Below are positions 6,800 through 11,119 of a stretch of 32,094 nt of DNA, in pieces. The stretch comes from Ruminococcus sp. GTDB taxonomy: Bacteria; Bacillota; Clostridia; Oscillospirales; Ruminococcaceae. The notes below the pieces were generated by a model. It saw only the letters and a list, made by a program, of their open reading frames with translations. It made no database searches and had not been told where the DNA came from. The stretch is taken from assembly GCA_015066845.1 (NCBI GenBank), contig SVNO01000022.1:1-32094 (forward strand), read 5' to 3'. A program made the translations under genes and the position numbers. Within the stretch, counting starts at the first letter, position 1. Each line of letters begins with the position of its first letter.

Positions 6800-7279
6800 T
6801 CAGACCGATGTGGTTTTATCGGGATGATCCGCCTGAAACAGCTGTTCCATCTGATCACGCTGGTTGGACATCATTTTCTTGATCAGGTGATCCGGAATGA
6901 CTTCCCCAAGCACTGCGAGTATGAACAGCAGTGCAGCAAGCACGACCAGCAGAAAGTTATTTTCATTCTCATGAAACGCACAGATCAGACAGAAAACTGA
7001 TGCCGTCAAAAGCAGGAATTCCCACAGGGAAATGAGAATCCGCCAGAGTCTGCCCATGACAAATCTGATGGTAATGGTGCAACCATTTTTCTTTGGGTTG
7101 AACTGGTACTGCAAACCGCCTAAAACGGAAAATGCAGGCGGTACATGCTGGACATGCACACATTTGCTGACGATTTTTTCATCAAGACAGTCATTGAGCA
7201 TTGTCTGAAGCCTTGCAGCTGTTTCCTCTGCGGAAAGCGGCGAATGCAGTCTGATCCGGCAATATTGTTCCCAGAACAT
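6800..7279 (-). CDS. Small two-helix membrane protein of unknown function, T-box controlled
   Basis: I start the gene at the ATG at 7279, which has GGGAGGG six bases upstream. The longer frame to 7387 would run through the T-box terminator and antiterminator. The product has 159 residues. Residues 1-78 are soluble (RIRLHSPLSAEETAARLQ, then a beta-rich NGCTITIRF stretch). Two membrane helices follow at about 81-101 and 108-126, with a short basic tail. The ribosome binding site starts just after the U-tract of the T-box terminator, so expression must depend on tRNA-Thr antitermination, and the message continues into thrS. I do not recognise the family. Being in a threonine-starvation operon might suggest a role in threonine supply or stress, but this is inference. 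Confidence 0.75.
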   Translation of the reverse strand: MFWEQYCRIRLHSPLSAEETAARLQTMLNDCLDEKIVSKCVHVQHVPPAFSVLGGLQYQFNPKKNGCTITIRFVMGRLWRILISLWEFLLLTASVFCLICAFHENENNFLLVVLAALLFILAVLGEVIPDHLIKKMMSNQRDQMEQLFQADHPDKTTSV

Positions 7280-7290
7280 CCAATCCCTCC

Positions 7291-7556
7291 CAAAACAAAA
7301 ACGCCCCGAAGTCACAGTTTTCCTGTAACTTCGGGACGATGACAATACCGTGGTTCCACCCGAATTTGCGCATAGAATGCGCCTCATTGCGCACCCGATA
7401 ACGGTGGTGAGCCGCCGTGGATTAGCACGGACTCCGAGGTGGTATACACTGCTGACACATCCTGCCCTGAGTTTCAGCCCAATTGCTCACGGCTCTCTGT
7501 AGGATGGTGGAATCTTCCTGTCTGCATTGTCTTCCTCATCTGCGTTTTTGATTGTA
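7291..7556 (-). promoter_or_regulatory. T-box leader specific for tRNA-Thr
   Basis: On the minus strand the conserved T-box GGGTGGAACCACGGT lies at 7347-7361. It is followed by a strong terminator (stem CCCGAAGTTACAG/CTGTGACTTCGGG, loop GAAAA, then CGTTTTTG). Upstream is a long Stem I region whose apical part includes AGAGAGCCGTGA and GGGCTGAAAC. The specifier region reads TATACCACCTCGG. Both candidate triplets (7441-7443 and 7438-7440) read ACC, a threonine codon, which agrees with the thrS gene downstream. Known logic: uncharged tRNA-Thr pairs with the specifier and with the T-box bulge and prevents termination, so the operon is induced on threonine starvation. Confidence 0.95.
7297..7336 (-). 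terminator. Regulated terminator of the T-box leader
   Basis: The stem CCCGAAGTTACAG with CTGTGACTTCGGGG and a GAAAA loop is followed by CGTTTTTG on the minus strand. It ends directly before the ribosome binding site of the small membrane-protein gene. Confidence 0.93.
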
Positions 7557-7561
7557 ATCTT

Positions 7562-7590
7562 ATGATAGCACATTTTCGGAGGTTTGTCAA
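7562..7590 (-). promoter_or_regulatory. Sigma-A promoter of the thrS T-box operon
   Basis: On the minus strand TTGACA (7585-7590), a 17-base spacer and TATCAT (7562-7567). The expected transcription start is near 7555, right before Stem I of the T-box leader. Confidence 0.85.
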
Positions 7591-7606
7591 GGGGGAAATG
7601 ATGAAA

Positions 7607-8401
7607 TTATGTATCCTTAGTAATTTCAATTAAGCCCAAGTCAAGCAGTGCAATGCCAATCAGACTTAGGGCATTGTAGAGATTGGTTTTTTGTTTTTGT
7701 GCCTCTTCGTATGTAAATACATCACGATTGCACTTACCAAAGTTATCCAGCTCATATTTGCAACCATTAATGATGTCCAATGACAGAAGGAGCTCATTTA
7801 TTGCGTGAATTAGTGTGTCCTCCGTCATGTTGCTCTGGTTAATTTTTTCCGAGTGCAGGTAATTCTTGATTTTTACCCCATCACTTTCCTTTGTTGAAAA
7901 CTGCAATTGAAATGTATTGGTTCTGAAATTACTGAGTGTGAAGCTTTCTACAGCCGGATAGCTGAGCAGGAGCATTCCATGTCCATCCTCAGCATCAGGA
8001 TTGTCGTAGGCATTGACTAATCTGTTCATCAGATCTTGTATTAATGCGGCATCGGTATTGGATTCATCATCCCTGTCAAACAGATAGTAAATAGCCGCGT
8101 TGTCCACATCAAAAGCATAATCCTCTAACAATTTGGAGAAGAGCTGATTTAAAAATTCGTTATCTTTTTTGATATATTTAATATTGCTTTCTTCCGTGTT
8201 AATAACAAAAACTCTTGCATTCGGATTGTCTTTGGGATTATAGCATTTGTATTCAAAATTTTGGGAACGCTTGATAGTTTCGTATTGGTAATCGAAAATT
8301 TTTTCAAATATTTTATTTAAAATATAGAATTCCGTTTTAGCTCCTTCTACAACAAACAAAACCTCGCCGATATTTTTGTTTTTATTCAATGTGATTTTCA
8401 T
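7607..8401 (-). CDS. TOPRIM/RloB-like protein, partner of the ATPase gene
   Basis: Encodes 264 residues from the ATG at 8401, which overlaps the end of the upstream ATPase gene by 20 bases; an in-frame ATG at 8416 is also possible. The N-terminus has VLFVVEGAKTE (E19), followed by YYLFDRDDES (D109, D111, D112) and SYPAVESFTL (E152). An EG.xTE strand, then a DxD loop, then an acidic ESF helix is the layout of TOPRIM-like nucleases of the RloB / AriB / AbiLii kind. This assignment is from motif order, not from a search. Known families pair such proteins with an ABC/AAA ATPase that holds the nuclease inactive until phage infection. The coding sequence is AT-rich compared with thrS and the dockerin genes, which suggests horizontal acquisition. 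Confidence 0.7.
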   Translation of the reverse strand: MKITLNKNKNIGEVLFVVEGAKTEFYILNKIFEKIFDYQYETIKRSQNFEYKCYNPKDNPNARVFVINTEESNIKYIKKDNEFLNQLFSKLLEDYAFDVDNAAIYYLFDRDDESNTDAALIQDLMNRLVNAYDNPDAEDGHGMLLLSYPAVESFTLSNFRTNTFQLQFSTKESDGVKIKNYLHSEKINQSNMTEDTLIHAINELLLSLDIINGCKYELDNFGKCNRDVFTYEEAQKQKTNLYNALSLIGIALLDLGLIEITKDT

Positions 8402-9524
8402 AATTCGGTACTCCATTGAATCTTCCGGAAAGGTACATCTTTTCCATATTCTGAGACGGTCTTGGATTCTCATCCGAAACACGATTCAGCCGGCTGCCGT
8501 CATCATCAAAATCCACTGTATAAATCTGATCGGGACGAAGCAGCCCCATGGAAAGAAGGTTAGTAGAGTGGGATACAAAAATCAGCTGTGCCCCCTTGGA
8601 TTCCTGCATGAAATACCGCACTAACAGTCTTTCCAGATCATTGTGAAAACCGCTGGAAAACTCGTCGATCAACAAAATGCCGTTGTTGTCAAGACAGTGG
8701 AAAATGGCTGGGAGAAGGCGGAGGAGGTTCTGGTTGCCGAGGGATTCCATGTCATAAGGTATTGGTTCATTAATGGAATGACGCTTGAAAAAAATGTATT
8801 TTTCATCCGATTCTGTGCTGAATGTAAAGTGCGTACCCACAACTTTCTTTGCATATTCAACACTCTGATCAAAACGATACATCTGAAAAAAGGTATTGAT
8901 TCTGTCCGCACCATTCTTTTTTAAATACTCAGGCAGTTCAAGATCTGCATTAATATATCTCCTACCCTCTGGTTTATACAAATCAAAATATACAGAATTC
9001 CGAAGCTCCTCAAACCACAGTTGAAGTGTAGAATTGCCACGAAATTTAGTACTAAAATAGATTTCTCTAAGAAAAAGAATCTCCTCAGGCAGATTATTAT
9101 GTTCAGTCGGCGTATCGATCGTTACTTTCGCATAGCTGCCCTCTCGTTCTAAAAGAACCTGACCGTCTGACGAAAGCCTTTCGTAGGTACAGCCTCTTTC
9201 TAAATCAAACCCGATTGCATAAATAATTTCGGATTCGCCCACAGAAAATGTATATCTAAGTTGGATGACTGAATCATCACAAAACAAACATTGATAAGCA
9301 CCAATGTTGATTTCCTCATTTTTGAATAACAAATCTAACAAAAATCTCATCGCAATAATTGCATTCGACTTACCGGAAGCATTTGCACCAACAAACAACA
9401 ATCCCTTCAAAATGCCGTCCTTCGTGTTGCGGTCGGTGAGCAGTTCGTAGGATGTAGTTGTCAGGTCAATGGTTGTCGGATTTTTGAATGATTTGAAATT
9501 GGTGATTTCATAGCTTTTGAGCAT
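8382..9524 (-). CDS. AAA/ABC-type ATPase (COG1106-like), likely defence sensor
   Basis: Encodes 380 residues from the ATG at 9524, chosen because GGAGGGG stands six bases upstream and the protein then begins with MLKSYEITNFKSF, the usual start of SMC/OLD-like ATPases. Walker A is GANASGKSN (46-54). An ABC-like signature SLGNQNLL starts at 261, Walker B is ILLIDEF (283-289), and the switch histidine lies in FVSHST (about 319). The region between Walker A and the signature has no coiled coil long enough for an SMC protein, so this is a compact AAA_15/AAA_21-type ATPase. It is translationally coupled to the TOPRIM-like gene. Similar pairs are RloA/RloB, PARIS (AriA/AriB) and AbiL. Which of these, if any, cannot be decided by eye. 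Confidence 0.8.
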   Translation of the reverse strand: MLKSYEITNFKSFKNPTTIDLTTTSYELLTDRNTKDGILKGLLFVGANASGKSNAIIAMRFLLDLLFKNEEINIGAYQCLFCDDSVIQLRYTFSVGESEIIYAIGFDLERGCTYERLSSDGQVLLEREGSYAKVTIDTPTEHNNLPEEILFLREIYFSTKFRGNSTLQLWFEELRNSVYFDLYKPEGRRYINADLELPEYLKKNGADRINTFFQMYRFDQSVEYAKKVVGTHFTFSTESDEKYIFFKRHSINEPIPYDMESLGNQNLLRLLPAIFHCLDNNGILLIDEFSSGFHNDLERLLVRYFMQESKGAQLIFVSHSTNLLSMGLLRPDQIYTVDFDDDGSRLNRVSDENPRPSQNMEKMYLSGRFNGVPNYENHIE

Positions 9525-9572
9525 ACTATTCCCCTCCATTTCTGCTTTGATAGTATGACTTTTTCTGAATTA

Positions 9573-9601
9573 AGTATACCATAGATACCGGATTTTGTCA
9601 A
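9573..9601 (-). promoter_or_regulatory. Sigma-A promoter of the ATPase-TOPRIM pair
   Basis: On the minus strand TTGACA (9596-9601), a 17-base spacer and TATACT (9573-9578). The leader to the ATG at 9524 is about 40 bases, so the two genes form an independent transcription unit. Confidence 0.8.
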
Positions 9602-9703
9602 GAAACTGCGGTTTCATTTTTATCAAAATACATCCAATATTTCCCCCTCTCAGTTGTTATATAAATAAAGGGCTTGTGCCTCACACAGAATGGAGGAATA
9701 CAC

Positions 9704-11119
9704 ATGAAAAAACAACTGACCGCAGCTCTGACTGCGTTCCTGCTCTGTGCCAATACGCTGCCGCTTGGTGCGTGGGCTGCGACAAATACAAGCGGTGAAT
9801 ATGAGGGACTGCACTGGTCGCTTGCCGATGGTGTGCTGACCATTGGCGGAGAGGGGCGTATTGTCTATGATACGGGCTTTCCCGATGGAGATTCTGCAAA
9901 ATATCCGGATTGGGGACAGTACGCCGATGAAATCACCGGAATCATCATTGAACAGGGCGTGACAGGTGCGGATGCGGACTGCTTTCGGGAATATTCCGCG
10001 CTGGAATCCGTCATCCTGCCAGAGGGCTTTGCAAGCCTGAGCGCGCGGGTGTTTCAGGATTGCCCGAAGCTGCGCGAAATCGAAGGGCTGGAGCATGTGA
10101 CGCAGTTCCATCAGCATTGCCTGAACGGCACTGCTATGACTGCCGAAAATCCCTTTGTCATTGTCGGCGGCAGGCTGCAATACTGCGACTACACCGAGGT
10201 GACGGACATCGTTGTCCCCGATGGCGTGACCTCCATCGGCGCGAATGCGTTCGGCAATCTGATGGAGGAATCGAGTGAATCCATTCTGACCGATCCCTTT
10301 GATAAGAGAACAGTGGAGGATCTGTATTTTACGATCACACTGCCCGATTCTGTCGAAATCATCGACGATTACGCCTTTGCAAATCTTACCACGCTGACTT
10401 CCGTCAACATCCCTGAAGCTGTCACCACAATCGGAGCATATGCCTTCCTTGACTGCGTACGGCTTGACGCGCTCACGCTCGGACAGAATGTGCAGTCTGT
10501 CGGGGATTATGCCTTCTTCAACTGCAAGGAGCTGGACACCCTGACGGTGCTTTCCGGTGATACCCGGTTCGGTACAATGGCATACGGTACACTGTGCGAT
10601 ATGGTCGGCTGTTTGATGGAAGCAAACCCCGACAATTTCACAGCGGAGTACATGGCGGAGTATCTGGAGTTTGACCCTTACTTTTATGATGCTGTGGCTT
10701 ACTACAACGTGGACTGGTTCGGAACGGGGGATTATCTGTGGTTTGACCAGTACCTTATGATGGAAAAGATCTCCCATCATCTCTATACCACCCCCGATGC
10801 CTTTGTACGCGGTATTGCCAATTCTTCGGCAAAATCCCTTGCCTATGACACAGGCGTGGGCTTTCTGGAGCTGGAGCAGCTCGGCGACTGCAATGGAGAT
10901 ACGGCTGTCAACAGCAGTGACGCTGCCATCCTGCTCTATGCCGCCGCGCAGGAGGGCGTGACGGGGGAGAGTGGATGCTCCGCTTTGCAGGAATGCGCAA
11001 TGGATGTGGACGGCAGCGGTACCATGAATGCCGTGGACGCTGCGTGGATGCTCAAATATGCTGCTTATAAAGGCAGCGGAGGAACAATGGGATTGTACGG
11101 ATATGTGAACAGTCTCTGA
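9704..11119 (+). CDS. Secreted BspA-like leucine-rich-repeat protein with dockerin
   Basis: Encodes 471 residues from the ATG at 9704, which has TGGAGGA upstream; the longer frame from 9674 lacks a site and would mask the signal peptide (MKKQLTAALTAFLLCANTLPLGAWA). A WSLADGVLTIGGEG segment, typical of the start of BspA-family surface proteins, follows. Then come LRR_5 repeats of the form VTSIGANAFGNL, VEIIDDYAFANL, VTTIGAYAFLDC and VQSVGDYAFFNC (about residues 90-290). The dockerin starts near 394 with loops GDCNGDTAVNSSDAAILL and MDVDGSGTMNAVDAAWML, and ends in an aromatic tail. LRR_5 proteins usually bind host or bacterial surface ligands, so this is probably a cohesin-docked adhesin or binding module, not an enzyme. 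It is monocistronic, ending in the terminator at 11181. Confidence 0.88.
   Translation: MKKQLTAALTAFLLCANTLPLGAWAATNTSGEYEGLHWSLADGVLTIGGEGRIVYDTGFPDGDSAKYPDWGQYADEITGIIIEQGVTGADADCFREYSALESVILPEGFASLSARVFQDCPKLREIEGLEHVTQFHQHCLNGTAMTAENPFVIVGGRLQYCDYTEVTDIVVPDGVTSIGANAFGNLMEESSESILTDPFDKRTVEDLYFTITLPDSVEIIDDYAFANLTTLTSVNIPEAVTTIGAYAFLDCVRLDALTLGQNVQSVGDYAFFNCKELDTLTVLSGDTRFGTMAYGTLCDMVGCLMEANPDNFTAEYMAEYLEFDPYFYDAVAYYNVDWFGTGDYLWFDQYLMMEKISHHLYTTPDAFVRGIANSSAKSLAYDTGVGFLELEQLGDCNGDTAVNSSDAAILLYAAAQEGVTGESGCSALQECAMDVDGSGTMNAVDAAWMLKYAAYKGSGGTMGLYGYVNSL

What the first reader, a model, noticed from the sequence alone, without database searches (positions are those of the whole stretch)
7607..9601. 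ATPase plus TOPRIM/RloB-like pair: candidate two-gene phage-defence system
An ABC/AAA-type ATPase (Walker A GANASGKSN, signature SLGNQNLL, Walker B ILLIDEF) overlaps by 20 bases a protein with EGAKTE, FDRDDES and PAVESF, the order expected of a TOPRIM or RloB-like nuclease. The pair has its own perfect-spacing promoter and is AT-richer than both flanks. It sits as a cassette between a housekeeping thrS operon and a dockerin gene. Known pairs of this design (PARIS, RloAB, AbiL) act by abortive infection. The sequence does not match any of them closely enough by eye to name it, so a new subtype is possible.
Basis: partly seen in the sequence, partly recalled or inferred. Interest (0 to 1): 0.75.

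Follow-up and report, generated by a model that had tools for sequence, protein, structure and literature searches.

The report
ATPase–TOPRIM nuclease phage-defence gene pair
A two-gene cassette inserted next to a housekeeping gene encodes an ATPase and a probable nuclease that very likely form an abortive-infection type phage-defence system, a poorly catalogued branch of the known AbiL/RloAB/PDC-M12 group.

Summary
Window 7607-9524 (minus strand) encodes an intact SMC/Rad50-type ABC ATPase (start at 9524; 380 aa) followed, with a 20-base overlap, by a 264-aa protein with invariant TOPRIM/RloB-type acidic residues. Fifteen relatives of the small protein in Ruminococcus, Paenibacillus and other Firmicutes all have the ATPase directly upstream. 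E24, D109, D111, SYP and E152 are invariant (E19 in 14 of 15), although the proteins are as little as 30% identical. The pair is accessory: no intact copy in the other 37 genus genomes searched. Removing about 2.0 kb (7592-9602) restores the flanks of a close relative. Elsewhere the family lies beside Gabija, GmrSD, type I restriction fragments, integrases and recombinases. Best reading: a two-gene abortive-infection (toxin–antitoxin-like) defence system, in which the ATPase senses infection and restrains a TOPRIM nuclease. The ATPase scores best with AbiLi and the effector best, weakly, with PDC-M12B; the effector fails the RloB, AbiLii and DUF4435 (PARIS) models. It is a distinct, half-catalogued branch of a known kind, not a new kind. 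Defence activity, nuclease activity, substrate and trigger are inferred, not shown.

The parts
8382..9524 (-). ABC/SMC-type ATPase gene (AbiLi/AriA-like; 380 aa; start ATG 9524)
   Evidence: Open frame; Pfam AAA_21 84 bits; PADLOC AbiLi 179 bits, PDC-M12A 110 bits; model fold SMC/Rad50/PtuA/AriA, Z 14-16.
7607..8401 (-). TOPRIM/RloB-like effector gene (264 aa)
   Evidence: Open frame; PDC-M12B 41.5 bits, E 3e-11; family profile versus RloB family 90% probability; AF2 model.
8382..8401 (-). 20-base overlap of ATPase 3' end and effector 5' end (suggests translational coupling)
   Evidence: overlapping or abutting in relatives too.
9366..9389 (-). Walker A GANASGKS (residues 46-53)
   Evidence: G46, N48, A49, G51, K52 invariant in 15 homologues.
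8736..8744 (-). ABC signature S261-L-G263
   Evidence: S261 and G263 invariant in 15 homologues.
8661..8666 (-). Walker B D287-E288
   Evidence: invariant; H-switch H319 also invariant.
8330..8347 (-). TOPRIM motif 1, E19-GAKT-E24
   Evidence: E24 15/15, E19 14/15 (one member shifted by one residue in the alignment).
8069..8077 (-). TOPRIM DxD, D109-R-D111
   Evidence: 15/15; aligned with D-x-D of the RloB family.
7946..7963 (-). SYPAVE, S147-E152 (RloB SNPxFE / PDC-M12B YPxxES equivalent)
   Evidence: S, Y, P and E 15/15.
7865..7867 (-). invariant K179 (candidate TOPRIM lysine)
   Evidence: 15/15; role inferred.
9573..9601 (-). promoter of the pair, TTGACA-17-TATACT
   Evidence: 11/12.
9531..9537 (-). 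ribosome-binding site GGAGGGG before ATG 9524
   Evidence: read from sequence.
7592..9602 (-). approximate extent of the inserted cassette; bounded by two copies of TTTGTCAAG (7583-7591, 9594-9602), which are also the -35 regions of the two promoters
   Evidence: flanks joined without it align to relative G704 at 284 identities and 55 mismatches; empty site in alignments.
7329..7551 (-). thrS T-box leader (neighbouring landmark, not part of the system)
   Evidence: RF00230, 58.8 bits, E 2e-12, below the gathering score of 93.

Best explanation
A two-gene abortive-infection defence system of the AbiL/RloAB/PDC-M12/PARIS design. The ATPase is made first and, as an oligomeric SMC/Rad50-like ABC ATPase, senses an infection cue and holds the co-translated TOPRIM nuclease inactive. 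On infection an ATP-dependent rearrangement releases or activates the nuclease, which uses E19/E24, D109/D111 and E152 with metal ions to cut nucleic acid (RNA, perhaps tRNA, or DNA) and stops growth before phage release. Shown here: gene structure, co-inheritance, invariant catalytic-type residues, predicted ATPase fold, accessory and inserted status, defence genes beside the pair in relatives. Inferred from related systems: sensing, restraint, nuclease activity, target, growth arrest.
For: 15 of 15 loci have the ATPase directly upstream of the effector and pairwise identities of the two proteins go together, rho 0.85 (expected of any co-inherited pair). Complete ATPase motifs and invariant effector acids. 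AbiLi model 15/15, AriA model 15/15. Effector family versus RloB 90% and versus PDC-M12B 60% hhalign probability, against 0.2-0.3% for DUF4435 and ATPase controls. Defence neighbours in distinct contexts: Gabija gajAB directly downstream in L013/L014/L020 (protein models checked in L013); GmrSD in L022; HsdR-like fragment, PDC-S14 and PDC-S31 in L086. Integrase or recombinase neighbours in L011, L012, L014, L020. Patchy distribution. Published precedents: an AAA + RloB-like TOPRIM pair of Clostridium algidicarnis validated as toxin and neutraliser (PMC10440598); Fusobacterium AbiLii toxic in E. coli (PMC3985639); AriB a TOPRIM tRNase held by AriA (PMC12409363).
Against: No activity data for this family. 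L. lactis AbiLii was not toxic in E. coli and Fusobacterium AbiLi did not neutralise its AbiLii (PMC3985639), so the restraint step is not universal. Structure search of the effector gives only weak TOPRIM matches (OLD 6njv Z 5.0, below unrelated rows; no Foldseek E below 0.001). In the window itself the pair stands alone, without a known defence gene directly beside it. Several relatives (Paenibacillus) also appear to sit in ordinary surroundings.
Confidence: 0.75

Rival explanations
1. A direct anti-DNA restriction pair (OLD/Gabija-like DNA nuclease) that cuts phage DNA rather than killing the host.
For: TOPRIM nucleases of OLD and GajA cut DNA (established knowledge; GajA paper PMC8136825 listed); ATPase fold is Rad50/SMC-like.
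Against: Tested relatives nearest at the effector level are growth-inhibiting toxins; the related AriB is a tRNase.
Confidence: 0.15
2. A toxin-antitoxin or addiction module that stabilises mobile DNA and only incidentally affects phage.
For: Related AAA + TOPRIM pairs behave as toxin and neutraliser (PMC10440598); relatives adjoin integrases and recombinases.
Against: Found next to Gabija, GmrSD and restriction genes; no record of the plasmid collection carries a recognisable effector.
Confidence: 0.07
3. A housekeeping or repair function unrelated to defence.
For: Sits beside thrS and coaBC; SMC/Rad50-like ATPase fold.
Against: Absent from the orthologous site of close relatives and, as an intact gene, from 37 other genus genomes; AT-rich insert; decayed copies in other genomes.
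Confidence: 0.03

Closest known systems
AbiL (AbiLi/AbiLii), Lactococcus abortive infection
   Same: Two-gene ATPase + RloB-type TOPRIM design; ATPase scores best with the PADLOC AbiLi model (179 bits; all 15 family members).
   Different: The window effector gives no AbiLii match at E of 1; only 8 of 15 relatives do, best 1e-6.
PDC-M12 (PADLOC phage-defence candidate)
   Same: Best effector match (41.5 bits, E 3e-11; YPxxES signature shared with the own-genome PDC-M12B at C60) and full-length PDC-M12A match of 110 bits.
   Different: The best PDC-M12B model detects only 8 of 15 members; ATPases form separate clades; the own genome carries a separate, canonical PDC-M12 pair (129 bits).
RloAB (RloB, PF13707)
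   Same: EGxxTE, DxD and S(N/Y)PxxE order; hhalign 90%.
   Different: No RloB match in the window protein, 3 of 15 relatives weakly; lacks the FELW(L)LHF signature seen in RloB proteins.
PARIS (AriA/AriB)
   Same: ATPase + TOPRIM pair; ATPase matches AriA models and AriA structures (8v46 Z 14.6, 8ux9 Z 14.3).
   Different: Effector is not DUF4435 (no match; hhalign 0.2%).
Gabija (GajA) / OLD nucleases
   Same: ABC ATPase plus TOPRIM nuclease combination; a gajAB pair lies directly downstream in some relatives.
   Different: Two separate proteins here, and no UvrD-like helicase in the window pair.

Membership tests
AbiL | ATPase matches AbiLi | tested here: met
   PDLC02335, 179 bits, 15/15 members.
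AbiL | Second protein matches AbiLii | tested here: not met
   No hit for the window protein at E of 1; 8/15 relatives hit, best 1.2e-6.
AbiL | Abortive infection against phage | not testable with these tools
   needs plaque and growth assays.
PDC-M12 | Matches PDC-M12A and PDC-M12B side by side | tested here: inconclusive
   M12A 110 bits full length, M12B 41.5 bits over 209 of 251 positions; PADLOC's own cut-offs not available here; ATPase separate from M12A in tree.
RloAB | Effector passes Pfam RloB PF13707 cut-off (31.5 bits) | tested here: not met
   No hit; 3/15 relatives, best E 8e-5.
PARIS | AAA_15/AAA_21 ATPase above cut-off | tested here: met
   AAA_21 83.9 bits, AAA_15 51.9.
PARIS | DUF4435 (PF14491) effector | tested here: not met
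   No hit; hhalign 0.2%; detection rule from PMC9122126.
TOPRIM nuclease superfamily | Acidic residue after strand 1, DxD after a later strand, in TOPRIM order | tested here: met
   E19 follows strand 12-18, D109/D111 at end of strand 103-109.
TOPRIM nuclease superfamily | Fold match to solved TOPRIM domains | tested here: inconclusive
   OLD 6njv Z 5.0 (144 aligned, 5.0 A), retron Eco2 Z 3.7, not above unrelated rows.
SMC/Rad50-type ABC ATPase | Walker A, signature, Walker B, H-switch and fold | tested here: met
   invariant motifs; Z 14-16 to PtuA, Rad50, AriA.

The most novel reading that the evidence does not exclude
The family is a separate defence type whose effector attacks a target, or whose ATPase senses a trigger, not used by AbiL, PARIS or Gabija; the invariant N-terminal K-x-K-x-IG motif before the TOPRIM core, absent from the own-genome PDC-M12B protein, would be part of that difference.
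Probability: 0.25. Interest if true: 0.55.

Novelty: new variant of a known kind. Interest (0 to 1): 0.4.

Why it matters
ATPase + TOPRIM pairs are widespread but mostly uncharacterised. This branch runs from rumen Ruminococcus to Paenibacillus, is missed at the effector level by Pfam and about half the time by PADLOC, and has defence neighbours, so it is a good test of whether restraint of a TOPRIM nuclease by an ABC ATPase, known in detail for PARIS, is the general rule. It also adds a defence candidate for anaerobic gut Firmicutes.

Tried and rejected
PARIS membership: rejected on DUF4435. RloAB, AbiL and PDC-M12 as exact filings: each fails or is inconclusive at the effector. Core-gene reading: rejected by presence/absence and the empty site. 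Effector in plasmid and phage record collections: no match; two predicted viral contigs of IMG/VR carry the pair, one with a phage-tail-like gene about 6 kb away, so prophage linkage is possible but not shown. Foldseek of the effector against solved and viral structures gave no significant match; AriB was not listed, which proves nothing. A first genome-contig scan with the single protein found nothing; the 3-sequence alignment worked. The G149 hit is an unrelated ORF. Phmmer hits of the effector to IFIT1 and others are chance. PDC-M12 is not described in the paper library.

Full report
What is there. On the minus strand, window 8382-9524 encodes a 380-aa ATPase and 7607-8401 a 264-aa protein; the genes overlap by 20 bases. 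The ATPase probably starts at ATG 9524, since the upstream ATG 9539 lies in the Shine-Dalgarno run GGAGGGG and homologous proteins begin at the equivalent of MLK. A promoter-like site TTGACA-17-TATACT lies at 9601-9573. The pair has GC 0.383 against 0.535-0.539 in its neighbours and GC3 of about 0.41 against 0.61-0.65.

Relatives. The small protein gave 52-61% identical relatives in two family genomes. An alignment of the three then found 15 loci in genome contigs: Ruminococcus, other Clostridia, Paenibacillus, Bacilli and Erysipelotrichaceae. In each the ATPase gene lies directly upstream, overlapping or abutting. The window plus 14 of these loci make alignments A3 (effector) and A6 (ATPase). 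Pairwise identity falls to 30% (effector) and 34% (ATPase), yet E24, D109, D111, S147, Y148, P149, E152 and K179 of the effector, and the Walker A core, signature, Walker B and switch histidine of the ATPase, do not vary. Identities of the two proteins go together (rho 0.85), as expected if they travel as a unit.

What the proteins are. The ATPase is an SMC/Rad50-type ABC ATPase: AAA_21 84 bits; its model (pLDDT 77.8) matches PtuA, Rad50, SMC and AriA at Z 14-16. Among defence models AbiLi scores best, then PDC-M12A, then AriA, for the window protein, and all 15 members match all three. The effector has no Pfam family, matches PDC-M12B at E 3e-11, and across the family RloB is found in 3, AbiLii in 8 and PDC-M12B in 8 of 15 members. 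Profile comparison gives 90% probability with RloB proteins (over the DxD to SxPxxE region) and 60% with the PDC-M12B protein of the same genome, in which EGxxTE, the DxD and the YPxxES all line up; DUF4435 and ATPase controls give 0.2-0.3%. These are small alignments and the probabilities are indicative. The AlphaFold2 model (pLDDT 83.5) places E19 right after strand 12-18, D109/D111 at the end of strand 103-109 and S147 at the end of strand 142-147, the TOPRIM order. Fold search is inconclusive: OLD TOPRIM domains are listed at Z 5.0 and 4.7, retron Eco2 at 3.7, but unrelated P-loop proteins score as high or higher. The TOPRIM assignment thus rests on residues, order of elements and the link to RloB, which others have tied to OLD TOPRIM (PMC10440598).

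Accessory and mobile. No intact copy exists in the other 37 genomes of the genus searched (one, G713, has a 34-residue fragment); 3 true carriers, the window's genome included, were found in 297 family genomes and 2 others in 398 of the phylum, one broken by stops. In relative G704 the thrS T-box leader and promoter are followed directly by a gene for a secreted protein that starts like the window's dockerin gene. Leaving out window 7592-9602 and joining the flanks gives an alignment to G704 with 284 identities and 55 mismatches. In G263 and G700 a homologue of the dockerin protein (46% identity) also lies 0.5-0.7 kb from thrS. The two cassette ends share TTTGTCAAG, which is also the -35 region of each promoter, so it may be a recombination point or coincidence. 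Many of the genomes are incomplete drafts, so absence counts are approximate.

Neighbourhoods. In L013, L014 and L020 the pair is followed about 20 bases later by two genes; those of L013 are gajA (706 bits) and gajB (555 bits), and L014 and L020 have the same neighbours by length and N-terminal sequence. In L022 a GmrSD-type gene lies upstream. In L086, a predicted viral contig, an HsdR-like fragment, PDC-S14 and PDC-S31 lie upstream. Integrases or serine recombinases lie near in L011, L012, L014 and L020, and L087 has recombinases, Fic, Schlafen-like and Panacea genes. L013/L014/L020 count as one lineage. No random-gene control was run. In the window no defence gene was found adjacent.

How it most likely works. 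Related pairs give the model: AriA holds AriB and releases it on infection, and AriB is a tRNase (PMC12409363); an AAA + RloB-like TOPRIM pair was validated as toxin and neutraliser (PMC10440598); Fusobacterium AbiLii is toxic, though its AbiLi did not neutralise it and L. lactis AbiLii was not toxic in E. coli (PMC3985639). Here ATPase-first order and overlapping genes fit a restrained toxin. Sensing, restraint, cleavage and growth arrest remain inferred, and the substrate is open; RNA seems somewhat more likely than DNA.

Known or new. The design is known. This branch is distinct in an ATPase tree (15 members, support 95/92, apart from RloA, AriA and M12A; long branches) and only partly covered by current models, so 'new variant of a known kind' fits. 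Filing it as PARIS or RloAB fails on the effector; AbiL fails on AbiLii; PDC-M12 stays inconclusive. It may coincide with a family already defined in databases not held here.

Noticed in passing
window 7329-7551 (-): A T-box leader (58.8 bits, E 2e-12, below Rfam's gathering score of 93) with terminator 7338-7302 precedes thrS; the ORF called at 6800-7387 begins inside it, so its true start must be further downstream.
   Followed up: partly
own genome C60:37344-39229 (L064, L007): A second ATPase + TOPRIM-like pair, a canonical PDC-M12 (M12B 129 bits), lies next to a flavodoxin/rubredoxin-like gene; relative L065 shows a similar ATPase with a shortened M12B frame.
   Followed up: partly
L013/L014/L020, downstream of the pair: The pair and Gabija gajAB stand about 20 bases apart, possibly one combined defence operon.
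   Followed up: partly
L009/L010 (G571) and L085 (G713): Decayed copies of the effector gene (several stops; a 34-residue fragment), suggesting gain and loss.
   Followed up: no
window 8382-9524 versus phrog_5836: A 1071-position phage protein family of unknown function matches the ATPase over its first 400 positions (E 9e-37), perhaps a fused phage-borne version.
   Followed up: no
window 9704-11119 (+): Neighbouring secreted protein has BspA-type leucine-rich repeats and a dockerin domain; the gene beside the thrS leader promoter differs between relatives (for example G699).
   Followed up: no
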